From an uncultured Duganella sp. (lineage in GTDB: Bacteria > Pseudomonadota > Gammaproteobacteria > Burkholderiales > Burkholderiaceae), in contig CAMLRG010000067.1 of NCBI GenBank assembly GCA_946482335.1, forward strand, positions 1-27,101: a stretch of DNA of 27,101 nt, read 5' to 3'. The position numbers and the translations under genes are program-made. Positions within the stretch are counted from its first letter, which is position 1; each line of letters opens with the position of its first letter. The notes beneath the pieces were generated by a model. That model saw only the letters and a list, made by a program, of their open reading frames with translations, ran no database searches and was not told where the DNA came from. Positions 6,226-27,101 of this stretch are shown in pieces.

Positions 6226-7803
6226 TTAGGGCATGCTGATCTCGAACCACAGTTCGTGTTCTTCCACGGCAGCCTTGAATTGCTGGCGGGCTGCGGCGGA
6301 TAGCTTGCCGAGACTTTCTTCGGGAGGGCGGACCTCGTCGGCCACCAATAGGCGGCCGAACGTCTTTTCCTTCAAGCGCTTGACCAGGGGGCTGAAGGGC
6401 ATCCCCATCCAGCGGTTCTTCATGGCCTCTTCCTTCGACACCGGGATGAAGGCGACCAGGTCTTCGCTGGTCATCTGTTCCAGCCCCAGTGTGCGCAAGG
6501 TGGCGTTGTGGCTGCCATGGTGGCCGACCTTGTAGAACACGGTGCGTGCCAGCAAATCCGGGCCGGTGACCACCTGGCTGCCGACCTTCCAGCGCAATTC
6601 CTGCCACGACAGCCAGTTGCCGACTTGCGCGTCGGCCGGGAACAGCATCACTTCGCCAGTCTCGGCGAACTCGAAGGCCAGCACCAGGCAGGTATTGTTG
6701 GTGTGGCTGTCCAGGTTCAAGGCCAGTGTTTCCGCCGCCTGCATCCAGTCGGCTTCGATCTGGCGCCATTCGTCGCCGGGCGCGTCCCATACGGTGCGCA
6801 CCAGCATGTCCAGCGCCTGCGAGCTGCGGCTGCCGCCGGTATGGCGGTCGCGCCGCAAGCTGGGGTCGAAGGGGCAGTCGTTGAAGCGGTCGTCGCAGCC
6901 GGGGATGCCGCTGGCAAGGCGGGTGAAGGCGGCGTCGAGGTTGCTCGCCAGGGCCAGTTCGGCGCCCAATTCGTAGGCTTCCTTGTTCTTACGCGAAGGC
7001 GTGCTGCGCTTGATCAGGAATTCATCCTGCGGCGGGCCGAGCACGTAGACGCGCACGCCACCGACTTCGGGCAAGCCCCGCGGCGCATGGTCCGGCGACA
7101 GGTAGCGCGTCTTCACATCCTGCTTGCCTTGCAGGTACTCGAAAGCATCCCGGGTGCGGCCGATGCGGGTGCCGGGAGGCTCGCCTGGCTTCAGGCCGAA
7201 GAAGCCCAGCATGCCGCCTAGCTCCTTGGCGCGCGATTCCATGCCCGGCATATGGGCGAAGGCGTTGACGGCGCTGGCCAGGGCGTTGAGCTTTTCCGCG
7301 CGCTCGGCGCGCAGGCGCCGGCCCAGTTCATTGCGCGGATCTTCCGTCCAGCCATACCAGACTTCGCCGATCGACATGGCGTCGAACACTGCACGTGCCT
7401 GGCTGGCATGGAAGCCGGATACATGGTCCCAATGTTCGTGCGTCATCACCACCACGTCCAGACGGCCGTTGCACGACTTCTCGATGTCCTGTGCCACGCG
7501 CAGCATCTTCTCCTTCGGCTTTTCTGCGACCGAGATCAGGCCGCAGTCGATCAGCACGTTGAAGGTCCCTTCGCCGTCATCCTTGCGAAAGCGCAGCAGG
7601 ATGCAGTCGCCAAGACCGTGCCGGTACAGCCGGATGCGCAGGCGCGCCTCGACCTTGGGCGCGCTGCGCGGGCGCCGCGCTGCACGGGTGGCGGGTTTGT
7701 CGGCCACGGCATGGCTGGCGGGGACTTTGCCGCGTGCCGCGACAGGCGGCTTGGCTTTGGCCTTGCTTTTGGTGGCGGGGCGGTGGTGGGTGGCGGTAGG
7801 CAT
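6226..7803 (-). CDS. MBL-fold metallo-hydrolase, third gene of the patatin-protease-MBL cassette
   Basis: 525 residues. Seen: a basic low-complexity N-terminal tail (about residues 1-55, rich in K, R, A, P), then a metallo-beta-lactamase fold. It has the metal motif HEHWDH at 122-127, a later FPADAQ aspartate, and KVGHHGSHNAT from about 425, like the end of ComEC-type MBL domains. A charged insert of roughly 200 residues separates these motifs. No signal peptide or membrane segment. MBL enzymes of this type hydrolyse phosphoesters, nucleotides or other esters; the substrate is unknown. The Shine-Dalgarno TGAGGT contains the TGA of the protease gene, so translation is coupled. Possible roles include a nuclease or cyclic-nucleotide hydrolase in a conflict system, but nothing in the sequence proves this. 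Confidence 0.85.
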   Translation of the reverse strand: MPTATHHRPATKSKAKAKPPVAARGKVPASHAVADKPATRAARRPRSAPKVEARLRIRLYRHGLGDCILLRFRKDDGEGTFNVLIDCGLISVAEKPKEKMLRVAQDIEKSCNGRLDVVVMTHEHWDHVSGFHASQARAVFDAMSIGEVWYGWTEDPRNELGRRLRAERAEKLNALASAVNAFAHMPGMESRAKELGGMLGFFGLKPGEPPGTRIGRTRDAFEYLQGKQDVKTRYLSPDHAPRGLPEVGGVRVYVLGPPQDEFLIKRSTPSRKNKEAYELGAELALASNLDAAFTRLASGIPGCDDRFNDCPFDPSLRRDRHTGGSRSSQALDMLVRTVWDAPGDEWRQIEADWMQAAETLALNLDSHTNNTCLVLAFEFAETGEVMLFPADAQVGNWLSWQELRWKVGSQVVTGPDLLARTVFYKVGHHGSHNATLRTLGLEQMTSEDLVAFIPVSKEEAMKNRWMGMPFSPLVKRLKEKTFGRLLVADEVRPPEESLGKLSAAARQQFKAAVEEHELWFEISMP

Positions 7804-7812
7804 GGCTATACC

Positions 7813-9768
7813 TCAATGGTCGGCATGGAGGAAGCAGAACGGCTCGGCGCGCGCGCCGGCGTGGCGGTCGAAATAGGTGGCGCGCAATGCCGTGCCGAGG
7901 TCGTGCCGTACGCGCCGGTGGGCACGAATCGCCTCGAGCCGCTTCACATCGTTGATGGGGCGCGTGATGGCGTAGCGCAGCGTGGGCACGACGCGGCCGG
8001 CTTCACCGGCTTCGCCTTCCAGGTCGAAGATCAGGGTGCTGCCGCCGGGGAATTCGAATTCGCCCAGGTCAGGATCGGCCTCGTCGACTGGCACCTTGCG
8101 CAGGCGTTGCGTGACCGAGATGATCAGCTGCTTGAGGATGTCGCCGTCGGGCGTGACGCGCAGGCAGGGCAGCACCGAGTGCACTTCGAAGCTCGGCATG
8201 CCGTCGCGCTTGTAGCGCAGGTTGGGCACGGCACCATCGGGGCGCAAGTCGAGGCCGGTGACGCGCATGAAGTTGTCGCGCTGTTGCGTGTTGCCGGAGC
8301 GGAGCAGGGCATCTTCCAGGAAGTCATGGGCACTGGCGCGCGCCTGTTTCAGCGTGTAGAACACGTCGCGCCGGTTGCGCTGGTAAAGCGAATCCTTGAC
8401 CAGGTCGCCCAGCGTCGCCGCCAACTCGGCCAGGGCATTCCATTGCTCGCCGTCGTATCCGGCCAGCTCCAGTTTGGCATAGGGCCAGCGCAGCTGTTCT
8501 TCCGACAGCGCCTTCAATCCTTCCGGCACGATACCCCAGCGGCGGAACGATTCGATCAGCGCCACGCGGTAGCCGTAGCGGTCGTTGGGCACCATGTCGT
8601 AATCGGCAGTGACCAGGGCGCGCAGGTAGTCGCCGAAGGTGATGTCGAACGGCGGACAGTAATCGAGGGCGCGGATCGACATTTGCAGGAAGTGGCGCGC
8701 AATCTTGGTCGCTTCGGCCGCGAGCGTATCGACCAGCACCGGATGCAAGGCGCCGTCGGGCAGCTTGCCGGTACCGGCGCTGGCCAGCGACACGATACCG
8801 GCCGAGCGCAGCTTGTACATTTCGATGAAGGCGGCGAACATCGCGGCCACCAGGATGGCGCCACGGTCGTGCGGCTCGAAGGTTTGCGCCAGGCGCGTGG
8901 GATCGGGCTGTACGCGGTGCCACATGCCGTTTTCATCGGTCTCGCCGATGGCGTTGCGCAGGGCGCCGTAGCTGCCGGTGGCAATGCCGAACTCCTGTGC
9001 CAGTTCGCCCAGCAGGGACTGCGATTCCAGGTTGCCGCGCGTGTGCGCGATCTGGTGCTTCAGCACTTCAGGGAAAGTGAAGTGCTGGAACAGCGCCACC
9101 AGGTCGGCGAAGGCTTCGTGGAAGGCCAGCGTGTCCGGATGGTTGTCGTCGATGTAGCGGCGGTGCATGCCGTCCAGCAGGGCATGCGTGGTCTCGTGGG
9201 CCACGATGTCCTGCGACAGGCAGGAAAACACCATCCCGCTCGGCCCCTGGAAGTAGCCGAACAGCAGCGCCTTTTTCTGCGGGCTGTAATAGGCGTTGGC
9301 GGCACGCAATGCGTGCGGGTAAATGCGCAGCGCCTTGACGAATTCCTCGTTGCGGTAAGCGTCTTCGCGCGGCGACCATTGCACTTGCCGGCCCAGTGCG
9401 CGTTCGAAATGCGAAATGGTGCTCATCGCCACCGCATACACCATCTGCTGGTGGAATTGCGGGTTGCCTTCGGACGGTGGAAAGCCGTCCTGGGCCAGCA
9501 GGTGTGTGCCGTTCAAGTCCACCGGGTCGTACCAGCATCCGCTGGCGGGATCGTAGTCCACCACTTCCACGTACTCGCCGCATGGACCGGGCGCCAACTG
9601 ATCCTCCCACGGCACGTCGAAGATGCGGTGGTTGATGGCGGCGGTATCGAGCTTGAGCGACAGGCTGGGATCGAAGGCATAGCCGCGCAGGCGGCGGAAG
9701 GGCGGGCGCTTGGCGCCCTGCTCGATGGTTTCCTGGCTGTAGTCGAGGCTGCTGGCTGAGGAGTACAT
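7813..9768 (-). CDS. Thermolysin-like (gluzincin) zinc metalloprotease, second gene of the cassette
   Basis: 651 residues. Seen: HETTH at 191-195 (two zinc ligands and the general base), followed by EAFAD at 218-222, the ExxxD motif that gives the third zinc ligand in gluzincins such as M4 peptidases. The N-terminal 180 residues include RGYAFDPSLSLKLDTAAINH and a tryptophan/aspartate-rich stretch. The C-terminal 400 residues match no domain I can name. There is no signal peptide or propeptide, unlike secreted M4 proteases, so it probably acts inside the cell. The SD AGGAG overlaps the TAG of the patatin gene. The usual reading is a peptidase; the target may be another cassette product or a host or phage protein (inference). 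Confidence 0.82.
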   Translation of the reverse strand: MYSSASSLDYSQETIEQGAKRPPFRRLRGYAFDPSLSLKLDTAAINHRIFDVPWEDQLAPGPCGEYVEVVDYDPASGCWYDPVDLNGTHLLAQDGFPPSEGNPQFHQQMVYAVAMSTISHFERALGRQVQWSPREDAYRNEEFVKALRIYPHALRAANAYYSPQKKALLFGYFQGPSGMVFSCLSQDIVAHETTHALLDGMHRRYIDDNHPDTLAFHEAFADLVALFQHFTFPEVLKHQIAHTRGNLESQSLLGELAQEFGIATGSYGALRNAIGETDENGMWHRVQPDPTRLAQTFEPHDRGAILVAAMFAAFIEMYKLRSAGIVSLASAGTGKLPDGALHPVLVDTLAAEATKIARHFLQMSIRALDYCPPFDITFGDYLRALVTADYDMVPNDRYGYRVALIESFRRWGIVPEGLKALSEEQLRWPYAKLELAGYDGEQWNALAELAATLGDLVKDSLYQRNRRDVFYTLKQARASAHDFLEDALLRSGNTQQRDNFMRVTGLDLRPDGAVPNLRYKRDGMPSFEVHSVLPCLRVTPDGDILKQLIISVTQRLRKVPVDEADPDLGEFEFPGGSTLIFDLEGEAGEAGRVVPTLRYAITRPINDVKRLEAIRAHRRVRHDLGTALRATYFDRHAGARAEPFCFLHADH

Positions 9769-9777
9769 GGGGCGCTC

Positions 9778-10788
9778 CTATTGCAAGAGTTCCGGCGCAT
9801 AGCGCTGCAGGCGCGCCGCCACCAGGGCGCCGCCATGGCGCGCCAGCACCATGCGTTCCGCGGCGGTCAGCGCCTTCAAGTGGGTGCCGATGGCGGAGGC
9901 AAAGGTGGCGTCGCCCGGCTGCTGTTCGCCTTCCGTCGAATCGATGGAAAACCATAATGGCCGCGGTCCGGCGCCGGCTTTGTGGCGGTGTTCGATGCGG
10001 TCGAACTGCAGGCCGCGGATTTGCTCCATCATGATGTCCAGTCCTTCTTTCAGCACCAGCGCACTGGACTCGGTGGGTTCGATCTTGATTTCGTAAGGCT
10101 TGCCGCCATCGCTGACGATCAGGTAATCGAGCTGGTTCTGCTGGCTCAGGCCAGGATTCACGCCCAGGTTGTCGTACACGCCGCCGTCGCTGAGCGTCAC
10201 GTAGTCGCAGCGCACTGCGGGGGCATAGGCATCGGCATCCAGCCGCAGTGGCGGGAACACGGGTGGGAAGGCGGAGGAGGCGGCCACTGCGCGCGCGATC
10301 GGGAATCCGGGTGCGGGCACCACGCCCAGTTCATGCTCGCCCATCTCACAAGGCAGGCCGCCGCCGGCCACGAAGAAGAACATATTCCCGGTCGCCAGGT
10401 TGGTGGAATTCAGGTAGATGCGCGGGCCGCCGGAAAGCTTGTCCAGCGTCTTGCCCTGGAATAGGTCGCGGTCGTAGCTGGCAGCCAGTTTGTCCAGGCG
10501 GGATTGGAAGGGATCGAGCACGCCGCCGATCACCGAGCCGACGGCGATCGAACGCGTGGCCAGGTATTGTTCCAGCTTGTCGAGCACTTGCGGATCGCCC
10601 CAGTGCAGGGCGAGGAAGGCGCCGGCGATGCTACCGCCGCTGACGCAGGACAGCAAGTCGATCTTATCGAGCAGATTGCGTTGCTTGAGGGCGCGCAACA
10701 CGCCAAGGTGGAAGCCGGCGGCGCGGAATCCCCCGCCGGACAAGGTGAGCCCGATGCGCTTGCTGCCACCGTTGATCGTGATAGCCAT
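9778..10788 (-). CDS. Patatin-like phospholipase, first gene of the cassette
   Basis: 336 residues from the ATG at 10788, chosen because GGAGG stands 6 bases upstream; an ATG at 10821 lacks such a site. Seen: oxyanion loop SGGGFRAAGFHLG at 18-29, nucleophile Ser53 in SCVSGGSIAG, and catalytic Asp201 in SDGGVYDNLG. The elbow reads G-G-S-I-A rather than strict GxSxG, a variant I recall from other bacterial patatins. No signal peptide, so cytoplasmic. Patatins cleave acyl esters of phospholipids; in several anti-phage systems (for example CBASS CapV) they destroy the membrane once activated. Here it heads a tight operon with a metalloprotease and an MBL-fold enzyme. A housekeeping lipase role is also possible. 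Confidence 0.9.
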   Translation of the reverse strand: MAITINGGSKRIGLTLSGGGFRAAGFHLGVLRALKQRNLLDKIDLLSCVSGGSIAGAFLALHWGDPQVLDKLEQYLATRSIAVGSVIGGVLDPFQSRLDKLAASYDRDLFQGKTLDKLSGGPRIYLNSTNLATGNMFFFVAGGGLPCEMGEHELGVVPAPGFPIARAVAASSAFPPVFPPLRLDADAYAPAVRCDYVTLSDGGVYDNLGVNPGLSQQNQLDYLIVSDGGKPYEIKIEPTESSALVLKEGLDIMMEQIRGLQFDRIEHRHKAGAGPRPLWFSIDSTEGEQQPGDATFASAIGTHLKALTAAERMVLARHGGALVAARLQRYAPELLQ

Positions 10789-10823: not shown

Positions 10824-10889
10824 CTAGGAATCATCCCTAGTGCGTAGGGCGACTCCTAAAGGTTAAACAGTTTAATAGTGAGAATTCTC
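10824..10889. promoter_or_regulatory. Palindrome-rich control region of the patatin cassette
   Basis: Four symmetric elements lie between ubiK and the patatin gene. Two are TAGG-n7-CCTA (10825-10839) and TAGG-n6-CCTA (10845-10858), about two helical turns apart. A perfect TTAAACAGTTTAA lies at 10863-10875 and a perfect GAGAATTCTC at 10880-10889. On the minus strand GTGACA (10896-10901) and TATTAA (10872-10877), 18 bases apart, could be a weak sigma70 promoter. Operator function is inferred. Confidence 0.45.
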
Positions 10890-11345: not shown

Positions 11346-12459
<1,114 letters not shown>

Positions 12460-12470
12460 GGGGAACCGTG

Positions 12471-14021
12471 ATGCTACTCAAAAAAATATTGGCGGGGATG
12501 ACTGTACTGTTGGCCTTCAGCGCCGCACTGCCCGCGCTGGCCCAGGATGCCAAACCGGCGGAAGCGCCGGCCGCTGCAGCGACCGCGTCCGCTCCGGCTG
12601 ATGCTGCTGCCGCACCTGTACCTGCTGCCGCTCCTGCGGCTGCCACGCCAGCCGCTGCGGCACCTGCCGAGGCTGCACCTGCCGCCCCTGCCGCGCCAGT
12701 GGCCCAAAAGGGCGACACCGCCTGGATGTTCGTGGCGACCCTGCTGGTGATCCTGATGACCATCCCTGGCCTGGCCCTGTTCTACGGCGGCCTGGTACGC
12801 ACCAAGAACATGCTGTCGGTGCTGCTGCAAGTGTTCTTCATCTTCGCGCTGATCATCGTGCTGTGGTGCCTGTACGGCTACTCGCTGGCGTTCACCGAAG
12901 GTAATGCCTTCTTTGGTGGCTTCGGCCGTGCGCTGCTGGCCGGCATCTACGACCCAGCCAAGGGCTTCGCCATGGCGGCAACCTTCAGCAAGGGCGTGGT
13001 GATCCCGGAGTTCATCTTCGTCGCCTTCCAGGGCACGTTCGCGGCCATTACCTGCGGCCTGATCGTCGGCGCCTTTGCGGAGCGCGTACGCTTCTCCGCC
13101 GTGCTGGCCTTCATGGTGCTGTGGTTCACCTTCAGCTACCTGCCGATCGCCCACATGGTCTGGTTCTGGACCGGCCCTGACGCGATCACCGACGCTGCCG
13201 CAGCGACCACCGAAGCAGCCAAGGCTGGTTTCATCTTCCAGAAAGGTGCGCTGGACTTCGCCGGCGGTACTGTGGTGCACATCAATGCCGCAGTGGCTGG
13301 CCTGGTAGGCGCCATCCTGATCGGCAAGCGCGTTGGCTACGGCCGCGATTCCATGGCTCCGCACTCGCTGACCATGACCATGATCGGCGCATCGCTGCTG
13401 TGGGTGGGCTGGTTCGGCTTCAACGCCGGTTCGGCACTGGAAGCTGGTGACATCGCTGCACTGGCCTTCGTCAACACCCTGCTGGCAACCGCTGCCGCCA
13501 CCGTGTCGTGGGTCTTCGGCGAATGGATCGCCAAGGGCAAGCCTTCCATGCTGGGTGGTGCCTCCGGCGCCGTGGCCGGCCTGGTGGCAATCACCCCGGC
13601 GGCCGGCTTCGTCGGACCGATGGGCGGCCTGGCCATCGGCCTGCTGGCCGGCCTGATCTGCCTGTGGGGCGTGAATGGCCTGAAGCGCATGATCGGCGCC
13701 GACGACTCGCTGGACGTGTTCGGCGTGCACGGCGTGGGCGGCATCCTGGGCGCCATCCTGACCGGCGTCTTCGCTGCACCATCTTTGGGCGGCCAGGGCA
13801 TCTGGGACTACGTTGCCAATAAGGCAAGCGCCGATTACTCGATCGGCGGCCAGGTGGTGACCCAGCTGACCGCAGTGGGCATCACCATCGTCTGGTCGGC
13901 AGTCGTAGCCTTCATCGCCTACAAGCTGGTCGACATCGTGATCGGCCTGCGCGTACCGGAAGAGGAAGAGCGCGAAGGCCTGGACATCACCAGCCACGGC
14001 GAGTCCGCTTACCACGCATAA
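12471..14021 (+). CDS. amtB: Ammonium transporter AmtB with Ala/Pro-rich N-terminal extension
   Basis: 516 residues from the ATG at 12471 with AAGGGG upstream; the GTG directly before it is an alternative. Seen: a signal peptide (cleavage near AQ at 25-26), an Ala/Pro-rich stretch at about 27-79, then 11 predicted membrane helices starting at DTAWMFVATLLVILMTIPGL. The twin pore histidines lie in VVHINAAVAG and FGVHGVGGILGA. A polar tail with EEEEREG ends the protein. Family knowledge: trimeric inner-membrane channel for ammonium, shut by GlnK. The extension should lie in the periplasm once the signal peptide is cleaved; I know of no role for it. Confidence 0.96.
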   Translation: MLLKKILAGMTVLLAFSAALPALAQDAKPAEAPAAAATASAPADAAAAPVPAAAPAAATPAAAAPAEAAPAAPAAPVAQKGDTAWMFVATLLVILMTIPGLALFYGGLVRTKNMLSVLLQVFFIFALIIVLWCLYGYSLAFTEGNAFFGGFGRALLAGIYDPAKGFAMAATFSKGVVIPEFIFVAFQGTFAAITCGLIVGAFAERVRFSAVLAFMVLWFTFSYLPIAHMVWFWTGPDAITDAAAATTEAAKAGFIFQKGALDFAGGTVVHINAAVAGLVGAILIGKRVGYGRDSMAPHSLTMTMIGASLLWVGWFGFNAGSALEAGDIAALAFVNTLLATAAATVSWVFGEWIAKGKPSMLGGASGAVAGLVAITPAAGFVGPMGGLAIGLLAGLICLWGVNGLKRMIGADDSLDVFGVHGVGGILGAILTGVFAAPSLGGQGIWDYVANKASADYSIGGQVVTQLTAVGITIVWSAVVAFIAYKLVDIVIGLRVPEEEEREGLDITSHGESAYHA

Positions 14022-14034
14022 GCTGGAAAACTCC

Positions 14035-14089
14035 GGGTCTGGCACCCAACAAGACATGGCGGCGCCATGTCTTGTCAGGGGCCAGACCC
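14035..14089. repeat. Palindromic element downstream of amtB
   Basis: Inner perfect inverted repeat with 13-bp arms (14049-14061 and 14063-14075) around a single G, framed by outer arms GGGTCTGGC (14035-14043) and GCCAGACCC (14081-14089). The outer arms belong to the same GGGTCTG/CAGACCC family as the element at 15493-15592. Confidence 0.7.
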
Positions 14090-14096
14090 CGCGTGC

Positions 14097-14118
14097 GCCC
14101 CCTTTGGGGGCTTTTTTT
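14097..14118 (+). terminator. Rho-independent terminator of torF-glnK-amtB
   Basis: Six-bp GC stem GCCCCC/GGGGGC with a TTT loop, followed by seven T (14112-14118). It lies 75 bp after the amtB stop and before gshA. Confidence 0.8.
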
Positions 14119-14194
14119 GTTCCAAAGTATCTTTTAATTGCCGGTTTTGCCCCAAAATGGAGGGTCTGCGAATACCAATCAGCAAGGAAGTCAC

Positions 14195-15493
14195 ATGGTT
14201 CCCCATCTCGTCACGGCCCTGACCGGACCGTTACTGGATCTTGAAGAAAAGATCATTGCCGCGACCCCAGCCATTGAACGGTGGTTCCGCCTCGAGTGGC
14301 AGGAACATACCCCGCCGTTCTATGCCTCGGTGGACTTGCGCAATGCCGGCTACAAGCTGGCGCCGGTGGATACCAACCTGTTCCCGGGCGGCTTCCACTA
14401 CCTGGCCAATGAAATGCTCCCCCTTTCGGTGCAAGCGGCGATGGCCGCCATCGACAAGTATTGCCCGGACGCCCGCAACCTGCTGCTGATCCCGGAAATC
14501 AAGCCGCGCCACCCGACCTATTTCCAGGGCGTGGCGCGCCTGATGCAGATCTTCCGCCAGACCGGCCTGAACGTGCGCTTTGGTTCGCTGGACCCGTCGG
14601 TCACCCAGCCGACGCCGCTGGCGCTGCCTGACGGCAACATGCTGGTGGTCGAGCCGCTGGTGCGCTCGCCGAACGGGCGCCGCCTGGGGCTGAAGGATTT
14701 CGATCCGTGCACCATTTTGCTGAACAATGACCTGTCGGCGGGCATCCCGGACATCCTGACCAACCTGCACGAGCAAAGCCTGTTGCCGCCGCTGCACGCG
14801 GGTTGGGCGATGCGCCGCAAGTCCAACCATTTCAATGCCTATGACGAGGTGGCGAAGAAGTTCGGCAAGCTGATCGGCGTCGATCCATGGATGGTCAATC
14901 CTTTCCATGCCAAGTGCGGGGCGGTGGACCTGGCCACGGGGGAGGGGCAGGAATGCCTGGCGTCTTCGGTGGATGCGGTGCTGGCCAAGATCCGTAAGAA
15001 GTACAAGGAATACGGCATCAAGGAGAAGCCTTTCGTCATCATCAAGCCGGACGCGGGGACTTACGGCAAGGGCATCATCACGATCCGCGATGCGGCGGAG
15101 CTCAAGGAATTGTCGGACGAGCAACGCGCGCGCATGACGGTGATCAAGGATGGCAAGGCGGTCACCGACCTGAACATCCAGGAAGGGGTGCCGACCTTTG
15201 AGAGCATCAAGGAGGCCTTCGCGGAGCCGGTGGTGTATATGATCGACCGCTATGTGGTGGGTGGCTTCTACCGCGTGCATGGGGAGAAGGGGCCGGACCA
15301 GAATCTGAACGCGCCGGGGTCGCAGTTCGTGCCGCTGGCGTTCGCGCAGCAGCATGCGGTGCCCGATGTGAAGGCCAAGCCGGGGACCGCGGCGCCGAAC
15401 CGGTTCTACGTCTACGGCGTGGTGGCGCGGCTGGCGCTGCTGGCCGCGTCGCTGGAGATGGAGCGCACGGATCCGGATCCGGAGGTCTATTAA
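14195..15493 (+). CDS. gshA: Glutamate-cysteine ligase, proteobacterial GshA type
   Basis: 432 residues from the ATG at 14195, preceded by AAGGAAG; the longer frame from 14138 starts just behind the terminator and has no ribosome site. Seen: FYASVDLRNAGYKLAPVDTN near 42-61, LIPEIKPRHPTYF near 98, and a glycine-rich IIKPDAGTYGKGIITI at about 282-297 that resembles a nucleotide loop. The whole fits the GshA family of Acidithiobacillus and Burkholderiales (TIGR02049), unrelated in length to the E. coli enzyme. It joins glutamate and cysteine with ATP, the first step of glutathione synthesis, in the cytoplasm. gshB follows after 135 bp, most of it a large inverted repeat. Regulation is not evident. 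Confidence 0.93.
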   Translation: MVPHLVTALTGPLLDLEEKIIAATPAIERWFRLEWQEHTPPFYASVDLRNAGYKLAPVDTNLFPGGFHYLANEMLPLSVQAAMAAIDKYCPDARNLLLIPEIKPRHPTYFQGVARLMQIFRQTGLNVRFGSLDPSVTQPTPLALPDGNMLVVEPLVRSPNGRRLGLKDFDPCTILLNNDLSAGIPDILTNLHEQSLLPPLHAGWAMRRKSNHFNAYDEVAKKFGKLIGVDPWMVNPFHAKCGAVDLATGEGQECLASSVDAVLAKIRKKYKEYGIKEKPFVIIKPDAGTYGKGIITIRDAAELKELSDEQRARMTVIKDGKAVTDLNIQEGVPTFESIKEAFAEPVVYMIDRYVVGGFYRVHGEKGPDQNLNAPGSQFVPLAFAQQHAVPDVKAKPGTAAPNRFYVYGVVARLALLAASLEMERTDPDPEVY

Positions 15494-15592
15494 AACCGGT
15501 AAACCGGGGTCAGACCCAAGGGTCAGACCCCCGCCGGCATACCTGGGGTCTGACCCTTGGGTCTGACCCCGCCGTACCGGTTTACCTGGTTT
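15493..15592. repeat. Large inverted repeat with four GGGTC(A/T)GACCC palindromes
   Basis: Perfect 26-bp arms at 15506-15531 and 15545-15570 with a 13-nt loop. Outer arms of the form AAACC(A)GGTAAACC match with one gap. Each 26-bp arm holds two 11-bp near-palindromes; the four copies start at 15507, 15520, 15546 and 15559, i.e. steps of 13, 26 and 13. It fills most of the gshA-gshB gap. No T run follows, so it is not a standard terminator; it looks like a dispersed palindromic element. Confidence 0.85.
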
Positions 15593-15628
15593 AAGCTAGA
15601 ATCAGTTGTTACATTTTTGGACTAATCC

Positions 15629-16579
15629 ATGAAAATCGCCTTCCTCGCCGACCCGCTGTCCAGCTTCAAGATCTACAAGGATTCCACCTTCGCGATGATG
15701 GCCGAGGCGGCGCGCAGGGGGCATGAGGTGTACGCCTTCCAGCAGCGCCACATGGCGCTCAAGGAAGGCAAGGTCACGGCCCACGTCTCGCGCATCGAGC
15801 TGACCGGCGACCAGGACGACTGGTACAAGGCCGCGCCGTCCGAAGACACCAGCCTGGCCGCCTTCGACGCCTTGATCCAGCGCAAGGACCCGCCGTTCGA
15901 CATGGAATACGTCTACGGCACCTACCTGCTGCAGCTGGCCGAGAAGGAGGGCGCCAGGGTCTTCAACAAGCCCTCCGCCATCCGCGACCACAACGAAAAG
16001 CTGGCCATCGCCCAGTTCTCGCAGTTCACCGCCCCGACCCTGGTCAGCAGCGATGAAACCCGCCTGCGCGACTTCCAGGCCGAACACGGCGACGTGATCC
16101 TGAAGCCGCTGGACGGCATGGGCGGCGCCGGCATCTTCCGCATCAAGGGTGATGGCCTGAACCTGGGCTCCATCATCGAAACCCTGACCCAGCACGGTGG
16201 CCGCACCATCATGGCGCAGCGCTACATCCCCGACATCGTCAAGGGCGACAAGCGCATCCTGCTGATCGACGGCAAGCCGGTGCCCTACTGCCTGGCGCGC
16301 ATCCCGCAGGCCGGCGAAGTGCGCGGCAACCTGGCGGCCGGCGGCACCGGCGTGGCCCAGCCCCTGTCGCAGCGCGACCGCGAGATCGCCGAGGCCCTGG
16401 GCCCGGAATTGGCTTCGCGCGGCCTCTTGCTGGTAGGATTAGACGTGATCGGCGATTACCTCACCGAGGTGAACGTCACCAGCCCAACCTGCTTCCAGGA
16501 GATCACGCAGCAGACAGGCTTCCAGGTCGCGTCGATGTTCATCGACGCGGTGGAAGCCCGGGCAGGCAAGCAAGGATAA
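15629..16579 (+). CDS. gshB: Glutathione synthase
   Basis: 316 residues, normal for bacterial GshB. Seen: MKIAFLADPLSSFKIYKDST, the N-terminal substrate domain, then the ATP-grasp domain with VILKPLDGMGGAGIFRI at about 155-171. The metal-binding stretch EVNVTSPTCFQEI lies near the C-terminus. It adds glycine to gamma-glutamylcysteine with ATP. Cytoplasmic. The ribosome site is weak. A TAGAAT at 15597-15602 may be part of a promoter between the inverted repeat and the gene, but I see no good -35. The next gene, PTS EIIA, starts 2 bp after its stop, so glutathione synthesis and the PTS genes share a transcript. Confidence 0.96.
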   Translation: MKIAFLADPLSSFKIYKDSTFAMMAEAARRGHEVYAFQQRHMALKEGKVTAHVSRIELTGDQDDWYKAAPSEDTSLAAFDALIQRKDPPFDMEYVYGTYLLQLAEKEGARVFNKPSAIRDHNEKLAIAQFSQFTAPTLVSSDETRLRDFQAEHGDVILKPLDGMGGAGIFRIKGDGLNLGSIIETLTQHGGRTIMAQRYIPDIVKGDKRILLIDGKPVPYCLARIPQAGEVRGNLAAGGTGVAQPLSQRDREIAEALGPELASRGLLLVGLDVIGDYLTEVNVTSPTCFQEITQQTGFQVASMFIDAVEARAGKQG

Positions 16580-16581
16580 AC

Positions 16582-16983
16582 ATGGTAGGGATTTTATTGA
16601 TGACGCATGCGCCGCTGGGCCAGGCTTTCCTGGCCGCCGCGGCCCATGTGTTCCGGGCCCCGGTGGAGAAGCTGGAGGCGATCGACGTGGTGGCGGACCA
16701 GGACTTGAACGAAGTGCAGCAGCTGGCGCGCGAGGCCATCAAGCGCCTCGATTCCGGTGCCGGGGTGCTGGTCATGACCGATATCAAAGGCGGCACGCCC
16801 GCCAATTGCTGCAACAAGCTGGCCGACGCGGGCCGGGTCGAGGTGGTTGCGGGCATCAGCTTGCCGATGCTGCTGCGCGCCATCACCTACCGTACCGATA
16901 CGCTGGACGTGGTGGTGGAAATGGCCCTGGCCGGCGCGCAGAACGGCGCCGTCAAAGTCGACAATCGTATCCGAGTCAACTAA
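16582..16983 (+). CDS. PTS EIIA component, mannose/fructose type
   Basis: 133 residues, a single EIIA-Man domain without a IIB part. Seen: the phosphorylated His9 in ILLMTHAPLG and the stabilising Asp67 in VMTDIKGGTPAN. AAGGA precedes the ATG. It accepts phosphate from HPr. No IIB, IIC or IID gene is nearby, and many betaproteobacteria have exactly this set (EIIA-Man, HPr, EI) as a regulatory phosphorelay; a sugar transport role is therefore uncertain. Two bp behind gshB and 12 bp before the HPr gene. Confidence 0.92.
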   Translation: MVGILLMTHAPLGQAFLAAAAHVFRAPVEKLEAIDVVADQDLNEVQQLAREAIKRLDSGAGVLVMTDIKGGTPANCCNKLADAGRVEVVAGISLPMLLRAITYRTDTLDVVVEMALAGAQNGAVKVDNRIRVN

Positions 16984-16995
16984 ACAAACTAAAAC

Positions 16996-17265
16996 ATGAT
17001 TCAGCAAGAACTTGAAATTATCAACAAGCTCGGATTGCATGCACGTGCTTCTGCAAAATTCACCCAGCTGGCCGCCAAGTTCCAGAGCGACGTCTGGCTG
17101 TCGCGCAACGGCCGCCGCATCAACGCCAAGTCCATCATGGGCGTGATGATGCTGGCCGCCGGCAAGGGCGCCAAGGTCCTGCTGGAAGCGGACGGCGCCG
17201 ACGAACAGGATTGCATCAACGCCCTGACCGCACTGGTCAACGACAAGTTCGGCGAAGGCGAGTAA
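16996..17265 (+). CDS. ptsH: Phosphocarrier protein HPr
   Basis: 89 residues. Seen: His15 in KLGLHARASAKF (phosphorylated by EI) and Ser46 in NAKSIMGVMML, the site that HPr kinase/phosphorylase modifies; such a kinase occurs in many betaproteobacteria but is not in this window. Normal length. The leader before the ATG is A-rich without a clear Shine-Dalgarno. The stop TAA is followed at once by the ATG of the EI gene, so the two are coupled. It passes phosphate from EI to the EIIA protein encoded upstream. Confidence 0.95.
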   Translation: MIQQELEIINKLGLHARASAKFTQLAAKFQSDVWLSRNGRRINAKSIMGVMMLAAGKGAKVLLEADGADEQDCINALTALVNDKFGEGE

Positions 17266-19032
17266 ATGCGGGACGGCAGCCCGATGGCATCGTTCTCCCT
17301 CCACGGCATCCCGGTTTCGCGCGGCATCGCGATCGGACGCGCGCACATCCTGGCGCCGGCGGCGCTGGATGTGAAGCATTACCTGATCGCCGAGGAGCAC
17401 GTGGAAGCGGAAGTGCGGCGCCTGCAGCAGGCGCTGGCCGCCGTGCACCGCGAACTGCAGACGCTGTGGAATGAGTTGCCGAAGGATGCGCCGACCGAAC
17501 TGGGCGCCTTCATCGACGTCCACGCCCTGATCCTGTCGGACCCGATGATTTCCGAGGCGCCGCTGGACATCATCCGCAGCCGCCACTACAACGCCGAGTG
17601 GGCGCTGCTGACCCAGATCGACGAACTGTCGGCGCAATTCGACGAAATCGAAGACCCATACCTGCGCGAGCGCAAGGCCGACATCCAGCAGGTCGCCGAG
17701 CGGGTGCTGAAAGTCCTGATGGGCAGCGAGCCGCTGCTGCCGAAGCAGGCCGAACTCGAAGGCGATGAATTCCTGGCCCAGATGATCGTGGTGGCCCACG
17801 ACATCTCGCCGGCCGACATGCTGAAGTTCCGCGACCGTTCCTTCATCGGCTTCGTGACCGACGTGGGCGGCCAGAACTCGCACACTGCCATCGTGGCCCG
17901 TTCGCTGGACATCCCGGCCGCCGTCGGCATGTCGCAGGCATCGACCCTGATCCAGCAGGACGACTGGGTGATCATCGACGGTGACGCCGGCGTGGTCATC
18001 GTCACGCCAAGCGCGCAAGTGCTGGAGCAATACCGCGAACGCCAGCTGGCCGCCATGCGCGCCCGCAAGAAGCTGGGCAAGCTGAAAAAGACGCCGGCCG
18101 TCACCAAGGATGGCACGCAGATCGCGCTGATGGCCAATATCGAGCTGCCGGACGATTGCGAGCATGCCATGGAGTCGGGCGCCAACGGCGTTGGCCTGTT
18201 CCGTTCCGAATTCCTGTTCATGGGCCGCGGCGGCGACATGCCATCCGAGGACGAGCAGTACGAGCAATACAAGAAGGCCGTCGTCGCCATGAAGGGCCGT
18301 CCGGTGACGATCCGCACGCTCGACATCGGCGCCGACAAGCCGCTGGACCAGATGGAGCACACGGCGCTCAATCCGGCCCTGGGCCTGCGCGCCATCCGCT
18401 ATTGCCTGGCGGAGCCGCAGATCTTCCTGACCCAGCTGCGCGCCATCCTGCGCGCGTCCGAGCACGGCAAGGTGCGCATCCTGATCCCGATGATGGCGCA
18501 TGCTTTCGAGATCGAGCAGTCGCTGGCCATGATCAAGCGCGCCAAGGCGCAGCTGGACGAGGCGGGGCGGAAGTACGACCCGGAAGTGCCGGTTGGTGCC
18601 ATGATCGAAATCCCCGCCGCTGCGCTGGCGCTGCCGATGTTCGTCAAGAAGATGGATTTCCTGTCCATCGGCACCAATGACCTGATCCAGTACACGCTGG
18701 CGATCGACCGCGTCGACTACGAAGTGGCACACCTGTACAATCCGCTGCACCCGGCCATCCTGCAACTGATCTCGATGACCATTGCCGCCGGCCACAAGGC
18801 CGGCATCGAAGTGGCGGTGTGCGGCGAGATGGCGGGCGACACCAAGCTGACCCGCCTGCTGCTGGGCATGGGCTTGCGCGAATTCTCGATGCACCCGTCG
18901 CAGCTGCTGTCGGTCAAGCAGGAAATCCTGAACAGCGACATGGCGCAGATCATGCCGCAGATGCGCAAGATCATGCGCACCATGGATCCCGAGGCGATCG
19001 CCGACGCTGTCATCGCCCTGCAAGCCCTGTAA
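17266..19032 (+). CDS. ptsI: PTS enzyme I (phosphoenolpyruvate-protein phosphotransferase)
   Basis: 588 residues from the ATG that touches the HPr stop; a second ATG at 17284 ([14 protein letters not shown]) fits the family start better and may be the true one. Seen: the N-terminal HPr-binding domain, the phospho-histidine His206 in [19 protein letters not shown], the PEP-binding barrel with [31 protein letters not shown], and the catalytic cysteine in [10 protein letters not shown]. It transfers phosphate from PEP to HPr in the cytoplasm. No extra GAF domain, so it is classical EI and not PtsP. metX follows after 20 bp. Confidence 0.95.
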
Positions 19033-23625: not shown

Positions 23626-24324
23626 TCAGCAGCCGCAGGCGGCTTCCCGGCCGTGAGTGTGCGCCGCCTTGCGCAGCAAACTGCCTTGTGGCGCGCCGGT
23701 AGACAAGTACAGCCTTTCGTCATAGCCGCAGTTGTCATCCGGGATGGCAAGCAGCAGGTCGAGTTTGCCGTCGCCATCCAGGTCGCCGGACCAATAGACA
23801 ACTGGTGTGGTGTCGCCGCCGTAGTGGCCCTGGGCATCGGTAGCGAACAGGAACTGCCGGGTGGCGCCATCGCCGAGGTGGTAGCGCTTGCGGCCCTCAG
23901 CGGTCTTGACCCATGATAGCGTCAAGGGCCGCGGGCCCCAAGGCAGTGTCCATTTGCCAAGCTTGTTCAGCCGTGCATAGGCCGCGCTGGCGAAATATTC
24001 CGCATCGTCCATGGCGTGCCAGGTGACGACCTTACCCGGCTTGAACGGCAGGTTGGCGAAAATGGCGAGTGGACTGCCATCGAACATGACGCGGTCAAGC
24101 TCCTCGTCTTCATCCACGATGTTCTTTGCGATATCGACCGCGATTTTCACGCTGACGGGGCGCAGTTCGCATTCGACCTTCTGGCAGAACAGGCCAAGCC
24201 ATTGCGCATTGCGCGGGATGGAATGCGGCGCGAACTGCCGACTGCTATCGATGATGACCCCCGTGTCGGCGGCGCCGGCCGCGCCGGCGCATGAGAGCAG
24301 CAGGGCAGGCAACGCGTGGCGCAT
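23626..24324 (-). CDS. Exported protein with one VCBS/FG-GAP-like calcium repeat
   Basis: 232 residues. Its ATG shares one base with the xthA stop (TGATG), so translation is coupled to xthA. Seen: a signal peptide cleaved after AGA-A near residue 18, two cysteines in LFCQKVECELRP that may form a disulfide, an SWVKTAEGRKRYHLGDG stretch, and near residue 185 a single DLDGDGKLDLLLAIPDDN, the calcium-binding turn of FG-GAP/VCBS repeats. The C-terminus ends ACGC. Function unknown. The name FG-GAP refers only to that motif; a whole beta-propeller does not fit in this length. Confidence 0.78.
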   Translation of the reverse strand: MRHALPALLLSCAGAAGAADTGVIIDSSRQFAPHSIPRNAQWLGLFCQKVECELRPVSVKIAVDIAKNIVDEDEELDRVMFDGSPLAIFANLPFKPGKVVTWHAMDDAEYFASAAYARLNKLGKWTLPWGPRPLTLSWVKTAEGRKRYHLGDGATRQFLFATDAQGHYGGDTTPVVYWSGDLDGDGKLDLLLAIPDDNCGYDERLYLSTGAPQGSLLRKAAHTHGREAACGC

Positions 24325-25094
24325 CAAGGGTGGTATTCGATGATCAGCGGCGCGTGGTCGGAGAACTTCTCTTCCTTGTAGACCGACACGGTGTGCGCCT
24401 TGGCGGCGATGCCTGGCGTGGCGACGTGGTAATCGATGCGCCAGCCCACGTTCTTCGCGTACGCCTGGCCACGGTTGGACCACCAGGTGTATTGCTCTTC
24501 GCGCGGATCGAGGCCGCGGTGCACGTCGACATAGCCGATCTCGTCGAACAGCTTGGTCATCCAGGCGCGTTCCTCGGGCAGGAAGCCGGAGTTCTTCAGG
24601 TTGCCCTTCCAGTTTTTCAGGTCGATCTCCTTGTGGGCGATGTTCCAGTCGCCGCAGATCACGAACTCGCGGCCTTCTGCGCGCAATTGCTGCAGATGCG
24701 GCATGAACAGGTCCATGAAGCGGAATTTGGCTTGTTGGCGTTCGTCGGAGGACGAGCCGGAAGGGCAGTACACCGAAATCACGGTCAGGTTGCCGAAATC
24801 GGCGCGCACGTAGCGGCCTTCGGCGTCGAACTCGGGGCTGCCGAAGCCGATCATCACGCGGTCGGGGGCGGTCCTGCTATAGATGCCAGTGCCGGAATAA
24901 CCCTTCTTTTCCGCGTAGTGGAAGTGGCCATGGTAGCCGTGCGGGTTGAGGAATTCTTCGGTCATGTCGGGCGCCTGCGCCTTCAATTCCTGCACGCAGA
25001 CGATGTCGGCGTCGATCGTGCCCATCCAGTTGAAAAAGCCCTTCTTGGCGGCGGAGCGGATACCGTTCAGGTTCGCGGAAATGATTTTTGGCAT
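24324..25094 (-). CDS. xthA: Exodeoxyribonuclease III
   Basis: 256 residues from the ATG at 25094. A much longer open frame extends upstream to 26459, but it runs antisense through pyrE and is not coding. Seen: all catalytic motifs of the family: NLNGIRSA (8-15), Glu36 in VQELKA, Tyr109 in SVYCPSG, Asp149 and Asn151 in GDWNIAH, and Asp246/His247 in FSDHAPLII. It cuts DNA at abasic sites and removes 3' blocks in base excision repair, in the cytoplasm. Divergent from pyrE with a 48-bp gap. Confidence 0.96.
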   Translation of the reverse strand: MPKIISANLNGIRSAAKKGFFNWMGTIDADIVCVQELKAQAPDMTEEFLNPHGYHGHFHYAEKKGYSGTGIYSRTAPDRVMIGFGSPEFDAEGRYVRADFGNLTVISVYCPSGSSSDERQQAKFRFMDLFMPHLQQLRAEGREFVICGDWNIAHKEIDLKNWKGNLKNSGFLPEERAWMTKLFDEIGYVDVHRGLDPREEQYTWWSNRGQAYAKNVGWRIDYHVATPGIAAKAHTVSVYKEEKFSDHAPLIIEYHP

Positions 25095-25142
25095 AGGTGT
25101 TCCGGTTAAAATACTGGCACTTTGAACTGAGATGGGTGCACT

Positions 25143-25799
25143 ATGAGCAATTTGAGGCAAGAGTTTATCGCGTTTTCCGTACAGGCGGGAGTGCTGAAGT
25201 TTGGCGAGTTTACGACCAAAGCAGGGCGGCAATCGCCCTATTTCTTCAACGCCGGCCTGTTCCACGACGGCGCGACCCTGGCTAAGCTGGCCGACTTCTA
25301 CGCCCAGACCCTGCTGGATTCCGGCGTTGAATTCGACATGCTGTTTGGCCCGGCCTACAAAGGCATCACCCTGGCATCGGCGACTGCGATGGCGCTGGCC
25401 GGCAAAGGCCGCAACACTTCCTTCGCCTACAACCGCAAGGAAGCCAAGGACCATGGCGAAGGCGGCACCCTGGTCGGCGCCAAGCTGTCCGGCAAGGTGG
25501 TGATCATCGATGACGTGATTTCGGCCGGCACGTCGGTGCGCGAATCGGTGGAAATGATCCGCAATGCCGGCGCCGAGCCATGCGCGGTACTGATCGCGCT
25601 GGACCGCATGGAGCGTGGCGGCAAGGATGGCCAGATGTCCGAACTGTCCGCTGTGCAGGAAGTCAGCAAGAATTACGGCATCCCGGTGGTCTCGATCGGC
25701 AACCTGTCCGACCTGTTCACCTACCTGTCGGCCGACCCTGCGCTTGCACAATACAAGGATGCGGTGGCCGCCTACCGCGGCAAGTACGGGGTGGCGTGA
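25143..25799 (+). CDS. pyrE: Orotate phosphoribosyltransferase
   Basis: 218 residues. Seen: FSVQAGVLKFGEFTTKAGRQSPYF type N-terminus, substrate region GPAYKGITLASATAMAL (69-85), the flexible lysine loop NRKEAKDHGEGG, and the PRPP-binding motif VVIIDDVISAGTSVRES (119-135). It makes orotidine 5'-phosphate from orotate and PRPP in pyrimidine synthesis. Length is standard. Start set by GAGATGG upstream. Divergent from xthA. Confidence 0.97.
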   Translation: MSNLRQEFIAFSVQAGVLKFGEFTTKAGRQSPYFFNAGLFHDGATLAKLADFYAQTLLDSGVEFDMLFGPAYKGITLASATAMALAGKGRNTSFAYNRKEAKDHGEGGTLVGAKLSGKVVIIDDVISAGTSVRESVEMIRNAGAEPCAVLIALDRMERGGKDGQMSELSAVQEVSKNYGIPVVSIGNLSDLFTYLSADPALAQYKDAVAAYRGKYGVA

Positions 25800-25871
25800 A
25801 CCGGACTGGCGCCCGACGCAGCGTGTGCTAGACTGTAATTGCTTCCTTACAACATTAAACCGAGGAAAGTA

Positions 25872-26246
25872 ATGAACATTGCAACGCTCAAGGTGTATGG
25901 CGATGAGTCCGCGGTGGCGGATGTGCGCGACGGGCTTCCCAGTGAGCCCGACAGCGACTGGAAGAAGGGCGATACCAGCCCGACCGGCCGCACCCGCCTC
26001 GACCACGGCTTTTACGCCACGCTGGGCACGGACCGCAATCCCGACGCCCTGATGCGCCAGGTCCGCGCCTACCTGCACGAGTGCCAGGCGCGCGGCATCA
26101 CCTTCGACGTGGCGCCGATCCAGGCGGAATTGCGCATTGCCTTCGTCCCCGCCGCGGCCGACCAAGGCTCGCCCACCCTCGATTTCACGCTGGCCGATCT
26201 CACGCTGCTGCTGGAGATGGGCATTGCGCTGAGCATTACCTCCTGA
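25872..26246 (+). CDS. Small cytoplasmic protein, DUF4279-like
   Basis: 124 residues from the ATG at 25872, which has GAGGAAAG 4 bases upstream; a longer frame from 25839 has no such site. Seen: ATLKVYGDESAVADVRDGL at the start, then SDWKKGDTSPTGRTR, then a helical DALMRQVRAYLHECQARG and a final strand. The order (GD strand, WKKGD, helix, hydrophobic C-terminal strand) reminds me of DUF4279 proteins, sometimes seen as immunity-like proteins, but the match is from memory. No signal peptide. It is 3 bp before the hydrolase gene and likely co-transcribed. Confidence 0.75.
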   Translation: MNIATLKVYGDESAVADVRDGLPSEPDSDWKKGDTSPTGRTRLDHGFYATLGTDRNPDALMRQVRAYLHECQARGITFDVAPIQAELRIAFVPAAADQGSPTLDFTLADLTLLLEMGIALSITS

Positions 26247-26249
26247 CGC

Positions 26250-27101
26250 ATGAACCGATTCTCCGAAGACCGCTTCGCCACGTTCAAGGGGCGCAATGGC
26301 GCCGAGCGCAAGATCCATATCTGGGAACCGCAACAGCCGGTGGCCGGCGTACTGCTGGCGATCCACGGCGGGCTGGCGCATGCGGGCGACTATGTGACGC
26401 CGGCCCTGTATTTCAAACAGCACGGGTATGCCACCGTGGCGTTCGACCTGTGCGGGCATGAGAACGCACGCCGCGTCGATATTCCCGATTTCGGCATCTT
26501 CGTGGAGGAAGTCGCGTTATTCCTGCATTGGGTCAAGCAGCACTTCCATGGCGTGCCGGTGTTTATCATGGGGCATTCGATGGGGGCGCTGATCGCTACC
26601 CGCTTCGGGCTGGAAAGGCTGGAGCGCGATCCCCTGGTGAAGGGCTTTGTGCTGTCGTCGCCGTATTACGTGAATGCGATCAAGGTGCCGGCTGTGCTGG
26701 AGAAGCTGTCCGGTGTGCTGGCGGCGCTGGCGCCGACCATGAAGGTGCCGATGGCGTCGTTGACCGATGTGCTGACGCATGATCCGGCCATCACGGCGCG
26801 CCATCACCGCGACGAGGCGGACGGGGTGCGTGCGACGGAGTGCACCGTACGCTTTGGGGTGGCGTTGCAGGGGGCGCAGAAAGGGTTGGCGGAAAAGATG
26901 CCGACCTGGCGCTGGCCTTTGTACGTGGTGGTGGCCGGGGACGACAAGCTGGCGGACCCGAAGGCGACGCTGGATCTGCTGGCGATGGTTGATCCGAAGC
27001 TGCTGGAATGCCATGTGCAGCACCAGAATTATCACGAGAACTTCAATGAGCTGAACCGGGAGGAGATCTTCGCGGATATTTTGCGGTGGATTGAGAACCG
27101 G
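26250..27101 (+). CDS. Alpha/beta hydrolase (monoacylglycerol lipase-like), 3' end outside window
   Basis: 284 codons visible, open at the right edge. Seen: AIHGGLAHAGDY near 38 (oxyanion strand), FDLCGH, nucleophile Ser110 in IMGHSMGALIA, acid Asp232 in AGDDKLADP and His262 in NYHENFNE, in the order and spacing of the serine aminopeptidase S33/monoglyceride lipase family. Only a few residues are probably missing. No signal peptide. Substrate unknown, likely an ester of a fatty acid or a similar small ester. Starts 3 bp after the DUF4279-like gene. Confidence 0.9.
   Translation, partial: MNRFSEDRFATFKGRNGAERKIHIWEPQQPVAGVLLAIHGGLAHAGDYVTPALYFKQHGYATVAFDLCGHENARRVDIPDFGIFVEEVALFLHWVKQHFHGVPVFIMGHSMGALIATRFGLERLERDPLVKGFVLSSPYYVNAIKVPAVLEKLSGVLAALAPTMKVPMASLTDVLTHDPAITARHHRDEADGVRATECTVRFGVALQGAQKGLAEKMPTWRWPLYVVVAGDDKLADPKATLDLLAMVDPKLLECHVQHQNYHENFNELNREEIFADILRWIENR

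What the first reader, a model, noticed from the sequence alone, without database searches (positions are those of the whole stretch)
6226..10788. Three-gene cassette: patatin phospholipase, cytoplasmic HExxH protease, MBL-fold hydrolase
Three hydrolases of different classes (lipid, peptide, ester/phosphoester) are encoded in one strict operon. All catalytic residues are visible (Ser53/Asp201; HETTH plus EAFAD; HEHWDH plus GHHGS) and none of the three has an export signal. Patatins and MBL enzymes occur separately as effectors or regulators in known anti-phage systems. I know of no described system that combines them with a large gluzincin. A conflict or defence role is a hypothesis; a stress-linked membrane or protein turnover module is the alternative.
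Basis: partly seen in the sequence, partly recalled or inferred. Interest (0 to 1): 0.75.

Follow-up and report, generated by a model that had tools for sequence, protein, structure and literature searches.

The report
Protease–nuclease cassette with swappable partner enzyme
A small movable gene set couples an intracellular relative of thermolysin to a DNA-uptake-type nuclease fold carrying two extra stretches, plus a lipase that other bacteria exchange for different enzymes; it looks like a new variety of bacterial self-destruct or anti-virus module, though it is untested.

The parts
9778..10788 (-). Patatin-like phospholipase, 336 aa; dyad Ser53/Asp201; the exchangeable partner gene
   Evidence: Pfam PF01734 71.2 bits, cut-off 27.7; Ser53 and Asp201 invariant in 20 relatives, window included
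7813..9768 (-). Cytoplasmic thermolysin/fungalysin-like zinc protease, 651 aa: HETTH 191-195, Glu218, His300; extra C-terminal domain about 430-650
   Evidence: No Pfam/PADLOC/NCBIfam family; 0 of 57 relatives in PADLOC; fold match residues 21-426 to M36 and M4 proteases; active-site residues invariant in 57
6226..7803 (-). MBL hydrolase, 525 aa, ComEC nuclease-domain-like; H122 H124 D126 H127 D391 H428/H429
7063..7410 (-). MBL region with insertion 1 (within residues about 132-247): 129 residues between HxHxDH and GPP against 47-52 in ComEC; predicted mostly folded (helical)
   Evidence: five ComEC domains; pLDDT block means 60-95 there
6709..7020 (-). MBL insertion 2 (residues about 262-365): 110 residues between GPP and NNTCLVL against 8-12 in ComEC; partly low-confidence; holds D309-C-P-F-D313, Phe312 codon 6868-6870, candidate cut site
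   Evidence: P311 in 54 of 54, position 312 Phe in 52 and Leu in 2 of 54
10827..10856 (-). Leader hairpin GGAGTCGCCCT...AGGGATGATTCC before the patatin; possible operator or RNA element
   Evidence: stretch folds at -18.6 kcal/mol; counterparts in L001 and L005 fold at -14.1 and -12.8; similar stretch read by eye in L087
10910..11152 (-). ubiK, upstream flank of the insertion site (not part of the system)
   Evidence: Pfam BMFP 93.2 bits
4636..6156 (-). comM/yifB, downstream flank of the insertion site (not part of the system)
   Evidence: Pfam Mg_chelatase/ChlI; ubiK and comM 76-405 nt apart in 18 of 30 relatives' loci

Best explanation
A mobile, immune-type (probably abortive) cassette whose core is a cytoplasmic thermolysin-like protease and a ComEC-like MBL pro-nuclease. 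SHOWN by sequence: the pair is adjacent and co-diverges; both active sites are intact; the MBL carries two long insertions relative to ComEC; a third enzyme is swapped. INFERRED: the insertions gate the nuclease; when an unknown trigger activates the protease, it cuts at least the second one (candidate site: Pro311-Phe/Leu312, nearly fixed in an otherwise variable, low-confidence loop) and the freed MBL degrades DNA. The partner enzyme adds a second blow or a second proteolytic step: patatin on membranes here; subtilase, caspase-amidase or another lipase elsewhere. The infected or damaged cell dies or stops growing. Where the amidase-caspase protein is present, it takes the place of the MBL.
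Against: No assay. PADLOC neighbours of chromosomal copies are not enriched over control (32 families against 62 in control), and the window's own site lies between housekeeping genes. No sensor/NTPase is recognisable in the trio. In the model insertion 1 is mostly helical and fairly confident (block means 60-95), unlike the disordered gating loops described for HamM; only insertion 2 has disordered parts (block means 42-81). Active-site burial could not be measured, and HamM/CanC sequences were not aligned here, so gate homology is by position only. The 7 amidase-caspase loci show that the protease can work without the MBL. Two distant MBL matches (L072, L073) are weak, 128 and 89 bits over the N-terminal half. 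Confidence was lowered slightly on recheck for the folded insertion 1 and because Phe312 is not strictly invariant.
Confidence: 0.48

Rival explanations
1. Conflict cassette with parallel effectors: patatin, protease and MBL each attack a different polymer (lipid, protein, nucleic acid) after a shared trigger, with no proteolytic activation between them.
For: Exchanged partners and neighbours are themselves degradative: patatin, PLD, LCAT-like and DUF2235 hydrolases, subtilase, amidase-caspase. Patatin evolves loosely from the core. Insertion 1 of the MBL looks folded.
Against: The protease-MBL pair is far tighter (r 0.93-0.97) than either with patatin, as expected of enzyme and substrate; the long MBL insertions need an explanation.
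Confidence: 0.25
2. A stress or housekeeping turnover module (membrane and protein repair) without a conflict role.
For: Window copy lies between ubiK and comM, near glnK-amtB and glutathione genes; chromosomal copies have no defence-gene excess.
Against: Present in about 1.5-3.5% of sampled genomes, on plasmids of five phyla, absent from the same site in close relatives, frequent partner exchange, a decayed copy in L006.
Confidence: 0.13
3. Effectors of a type VI secretion system delivered to other cells; DUF2235, PLD, patatin and amidase are T6SS effector folds (recalled).
For: Partner enzyme types resemble known T6SS toxins (recalled); some Rhizobium plasmid loci neighbour lysozyme, GH25, amidase or cell-wall hydrolase genes.
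Against: A VgrG model matches in 17 of 30 host genomes; by coordinates no match lies within 100 kb of the cassette on the same contig (nearest about 105 kb, G1081; draft contigs limit this), and 13 of 30 cassette genomes have none. No hydrophobic N-terminus.
Confidence: 0.04

Closest known systems
Gated MBL pro-nuclease + trypsin-like protease pairs (HamM with protease-HamA, Avs1a with Avs1b; also Lamassu, DRT), PMC12799240
   Same: ComEC-like MBL next to a protease gene, two insertions relative to ComEC, pair co-evolves and moves between genomic settings
   Different: Protease is a thermolysin/fungalysin-type metalloprotease in a separate gene, not a trypsin fused to HamA/Avs/LmuA; MBL is downstream, not upstream; insertion 1 is predicted folded; no helicase, STAND or SMC sensor in the window
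Canu (caspase-nuclease, CanABC), PMC12799240
   Same: Stand-alone protease gene upstream of the MBL gene; defence-island setting reported there and seen on plasmids here
   Different: No caspase in the window; in this family the amidase-caspase protein occurs only in loci that lack the MBL (7 of 7)
Patatin-like effectors of anti-phage systems (CBASS CapV type; NCBIfam DS2_1)
   Same: Patatin fold with Ser-Asp dyad, no export signal
   Different: No cyclase partner in the operon; 18.1 bits against a cut-off of 400 for DS2_1
Secreted M4/M36 proteases (thermolysin, fungalysin)
   Same: Fold over residues 21-426 and HExxH...E residues
   Different: No signal peptide; an additional C-terminal domain; no Pfam match in the window protein; short matches in the same family of genomes, read as ordinary M4 genes, cover residues ~95-276 only (80-113 bits)

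Membership tests
Gated pro-nuclease-protease pair | MBL of the ComEC nuclease type | tested here: met
Gated pro-nuclease-protease pair | Two insertions relative to ComEC | tested here: met
   129 against 47-52 residues between HxHxDH and the GPP/HP motif; 110 against 8-12 between it and NNTCLVL (five ComEC domains)
Gated pro-nuclease-protease pair | Insertions are disordered gating loops | tested here: inconclusive
   insertion 2 partly low-confidence (42-81), insertion 1 mostly confident helices (60-95)
Gated pro-nuclease-protease pair | Insertions block the active site and are cut by the partner | not testable with these tools
   needs biochemistry
Gated pro-nuclease-protease pair | Protease gene adjacent and co-evolving | tested here: met
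   48 of 55 loci; Mantel r 0.93, n=43
Gated pro-nuclease-protease pair (as described so far) | Protease is trypsin-like or a caspase | tested here: not met
Avs1a / 6A-MBL / LmuA nucleases | Passes the curated cut-off (Avs1a, 6A-MBL) or matches the library model over its length (LmuA) | tested here: not met
   Avs1a 26.5 bits against 420, 6A-MBL 33.7 against 220; PADLOC LmuA model matches 54 of 54 relatives, but in the window only residues 55-150, model positions 3-92 of 345
Lamassu | LmuB SMC-like ATPase in the operon | tested here: not met
   absent from the window operon; an AAA/SMC-like gene stands directly upstream in two Hymenobacter loci (Pfam on one)
Canu | Caspase with MBL nuclease | tested here: not met
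   no caspase in the window operon; amidase-caspase profile and MBL exclude each other in 55 loci
Peptidase M4/M36 (Pfam) | Score above the Pfam cut-off | tested here: not met
   0 matches in the window protein; 2 of 57 relatives hit M4 and 1 of 57 hits M36, weakly
Gluzincin fold | HExxH + downstream Glu in a thermolysin-like domain | tested here: met
Patatin-like phospholipase | Pfam PF01734 and Ser-Asp dyad | tested here: met
   71.2 bits; Ser53 and Asp201 invariant in 20
T6SS effector cluster | VgrG close by | tested here: not met
   no VgrG match within 100 kb on the same contig in 30 genomes, draft assemblies included
Any anti-phage system | Phage restriction on expression | not testable with these tools
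   no assay

The most novel reading that the evidence does not exclude
A new branch of bacterial immunity with an intracellular thermolysin-type protease as its hub: one protease scaffold that in different hosts is wired to a gated DNase plus a lipase, to a fused subtilase, or to a caspase-amidase protein, giving a protease-cascade cell-death pathway that uses metalloproteases where others use trypsins or caspases.
Probability: 0.38. Interest if true: 0.82.

Novelty: new variant of a known kind. Interest (0 to 1): 0.62.

Why it matters
It would add a third, unrelated protease class to the protease-gated nuclease principle published in 2025, and it points to a large protein group (7,989 database proteins at E up to 0.001, a list that may include ordinary M4 proteases) for which the window protein finds no Pfam, NCBIfam or PADLOC family. 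Partner swapping predicts which enzymes act together. [quoted passage not shown] this case shows co-evolution and insertions (blocking untested) and gives specific residues to mutate.

Tried and rejected
Ordinary secreted M4 proteases: rejected as the family, since matches read as such cover residues ~95-276 only at 80-113 bits, while true relatives reach 167 bits or more over 320-650 residues.

Phage cargo: one search found 2 of 50,697 phage records. L014 is an unverified faecal contig with protease and MBL; by eye one of its other ORFs looks like a STAS protein, so it may be bacterial. L174, the only locus from one scan of viral contigs, has only a distant protease core and no MBL. No good case for phage carriage.

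Defence islands around chromosomal copies: tested (130 of 194 neighbour ORFs against 130 of 226 control ORFs), no excess; the control had more families (62 against 32), mostly from a few reverse-transcriptase, Cas1 and homing-endonuclease models. Plasmid copies: 130 of 154 neighbour ORFs against 130 of 173 control ORFs from 5 of the host plasmids, strong excess. PADLOC families overlap, one protein can match many, and CBASS loci supply many of them; the tool does not report the number of proteins hit.

T6SS linkage: rejected. ComEC by sequence search of the PDB: not among the matches; found by fold.

The C-terminal domain of the protease (430-650): weak Foldseek hits at E 1.3-2.1 to proteins that I recall as NTF2-like, not claimed. 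The VIA list covers 21-426 only, so nothing is said about its fold.

Papers: searches (PMC open licences only). Only PMC12799240 was relevant: outline, whole-text parts 1 and 2 of 6, Discussion and figure legends read, six terms searched (none of metalloprotease, patatin, peptidase, gluzincin, subtilisin, phospholipase occurs at the start of a word). Its supplement (fig. S2, where other protease families may be listed) was not read. No description of this cassette was found in those searches; most subscription papers and bioRxiv were not searchable.

Rows dropped: L006 (frameshifted) from tree and distances; L065, L096, L101, L102 (split or cut MBL) from the Mantel test. L010 has an annotated patatin two genes downstream of the MBL on the other strand that my profile did not match; it is counted as 'other'. 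The subtilase profile, built from the fused kind, missed the separate subtilase of L104, which Pfam showed, so other separate subtilases may have been missed; annotated S8 genes stand near L063 and L073. The amidase-caspase profile was built from 4 of the 7 loci it is counted in. ComEC domains were recovered from 5 of 8 genomes (the script's pattern missed 3).

Full report
WHAT IS THERE. The window carries, on the minus strand between ubiK (BMFP) and comM/yifB, three genes 9 nt apart: a patatin-like phospholipase (9778-10788), a 651-aa HExxH protease (7813-9768) and a 525-aa MBL hydrolase (6226-7803). Pfam recognises the patatin (71.2 bits) and, barely, the MBL (24.2 bits, cut-off 22.7); the protease matches nothing in Pfam, PADLOC or NCBIfam. 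None has a hydrophobic N-terminus.

THE UNIT IS A PAIR PLUS A PARTNER. With profiles built here, an MBL frame follows the protease, on the same strand, in 48 of 55: in two of these the MBL is split (L065, L096), in two cut by a contig end (L101, L102), in two the match is weak and partial (L072, L073), and in L006 the MBL frame is open but patatin and protease are broken. The remaining 7 (L069, L089-L093, L108) all match, just upstream of the protease, a profile of ~990-aa proteins with an Amidase_2 and a caspase domain (Pfam run on L089 and L093; the profile was built from 4 of the 7), and show no MBL. Patatin is present in 20 of 55 by profile: upstream on the same strand in 15 (in L109 with one ORF between), downstream in 3, on the opposite strand in 2; L010 has a further, unmatched annotated patatin nearby. 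A subtilase is present in 11 (10 fused to the N-terminus of the protease; 1 separate and upstream, L104). In none of these loci did I find patatin and subtilase together, but the subtilase profile can miss separate ones. Other upstream neighbours are a PLD-like enzyme, an SMC-like ATPase, an LCAT-like hydrolase and a LigT-like phosphoesterase; DUF2235 hydrolases lie downstream in two. As an independent glance, 30 of the 56 best protease hits (P0001-P0056) share the length of their longest contig with an MBL hit listed (counted by eye).

CO-EVOLUTION AND SWAPPING. Distance matrices of protease and MBL correlate at r 0.93 (43 loci). In the 19 loci that also have a patatin, protease-MBL is 0.97, protease-patatin 0.52, MBL-patatin 0.56 (each p 0.001 by 999 permutations, which do not correct for shared ancestry). 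On the protease tree of 55 rows (54 loci and the window) the patatin label needs at least 9 changes (6 forced by starred branches), the subtilase label 3, the amidase-caspase label 1 (quick tree, some long branches). Close to the window's own clade, Noviherbaspirillum has kept protease (64-72% identity to L001, L002, L003, L005, L087, L105) and MBL (57-60%) but has a patatin of another lineage (29-33% to theirs, 54-57% to rhizobial ones).

MOBILITY. Long relatives are sparse: 10 of 294 genomes in the family of Massilia sp. H-1 (5 of these with the MBL arrangement, 5 with amidase-caspase), 6 of 398 across the phylum (centre genome included), 7 of 247 and 7 of 250 in two other families; 70 further genomes of the first sample have only short 80-113-bit matches, read as ordinary M4 enzymes. 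On plasmids, 63 of 72,556 records match, 25 over at least 80% of the protein; those I opened come from Pseudomonadota, Bacteroidota, Deinococcota, Cyanobacteriota and Planctomycetota. At the window's site, comM was sought in 60 genomes of the genus of G005 (57 with a match) and 30 loci were read: ubiK lies 76-405 nt upstream of comM in 18, including the two with the most similar comM (about 90%); about 1.35 kb upstream in 2; not within 1.5 kb in 10, of which one (L114) shows the cassette's MBL (minus-strand gaps recomputed by hand). L001 and L005 carry the cassette there with 4.7 kb between ubiK and comM; in G292 the end of ubiK precedes the cassette (read in the leader) and comM lies about 16 kb beyond the MBL. 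The site is therefore occupied in some relatives and empty in others; gain or loss is not decided.

SURROUNDINGS. Around plasmid copies: CBASS cyclase with SAVED or ImmA genes, SIR2, multiubiquitin/ThiF, JAB, DUF1837-helicase pairs. In a random 130 of 154 neighbour ORFs, 100 PADLOC families matched at 1e-10; in 130 of 173 ORFs from 45-kb stretches of five of the same plasmids, 4 did (one control stretch has an annotated Shedu gene). One CBASS locus can supply many of the 100. Around chromosomal copies the same test gave 32 families against 62 in control, each driven by few proteins: no excess.

MECHANISM. PMC12799240 (read in part) shows that MBL nucleases of ComEC type in Hachiman and AVAST are proenzymes with two insertions that block the active site, cut by a trypsin-like protease encoded next door, and that caspases play this role in canu. 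The present pair has much of that anatomy, with a metalloprotease instead. Thermolysin-type enzymes favour cutting before Phe or Leu (recalled), which fits position 312. I therefore propose protease-gated nuclease activation, with the third gene as a second effector or second protease. Against it, insertion 1 does not look like a disordered loop. What senses the trigger is unknown; the protease's C-terminal domain and the partner are candidates (inference). Proteolysis, nuclease activity and defence are all untested.

WEIGHING. T6SS effectors are unlikely. I rate it a new variant of a known kind, interesting because the protease class is new to the principle (on the literature searched) and the prediction is sharp.

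Noticed in passing
window 10827-10856, minus strand; counterparts in L001, L005, L087: Conserved hairpin in the patatin leader (GGAATCGCCCT...GGG-TGATTCC type) in copies at the ubiK site; not seen by eye in the leaders of L002, L003, L004 or the rhizobial copies printed. Operator or RNA element unknown.
   Followed up: partly
L089-L093, L069, L108: About 990-aa proteins with an N-terminal Amidase_2 domain and a C-terminal caspase domain (Pfam on L089 and L093) just upstream of an MBL-less relative of the protease; a second, unexplored architecture.
   Followed up: partly
ubiK-comM intergenic site, L111-L140: The interval between ubiK and comM is variable: 76-405 nt in 18 of 30, larger or no ubiK within 1.5 kb in 12; G292 has about 16 kb between MBL and comM. 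Possible insertion hotspot.
   Followed up: partly
L006 (Massilia sp. H-1): Decayed copy: patatin and protease broken by frameshifts or stops, MBL frame still open.
   Followed up: no
L063 9587-10690: A second ORF whose start resembles an MBL hydrolase by eye, placed directly after the protease-MBL pair in Hymenobacter sp. APR13.
   Followed up: no
L065, L012, L073 (Rhizobium plasmids): Lysozyme, GH25, amidase or cell-wall hydrolase genes close to the cassette; may be cargo or functionally linked.
   Followed up: no
window 12121-19032: Ordinary chromosomal genes by Pfam: P-II protein, ammonium transporter, glutamate-cysteine ligase, glutathione synthetase, PEP-utilising enzyme.
   Followed up: partly
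window 24324-26459, minus strand: 711-aa protein with a C-terminal endonuclease/exonuclease/phosphatase domain (Pfam 103.5 bits); not examined further.
   Followed up: no
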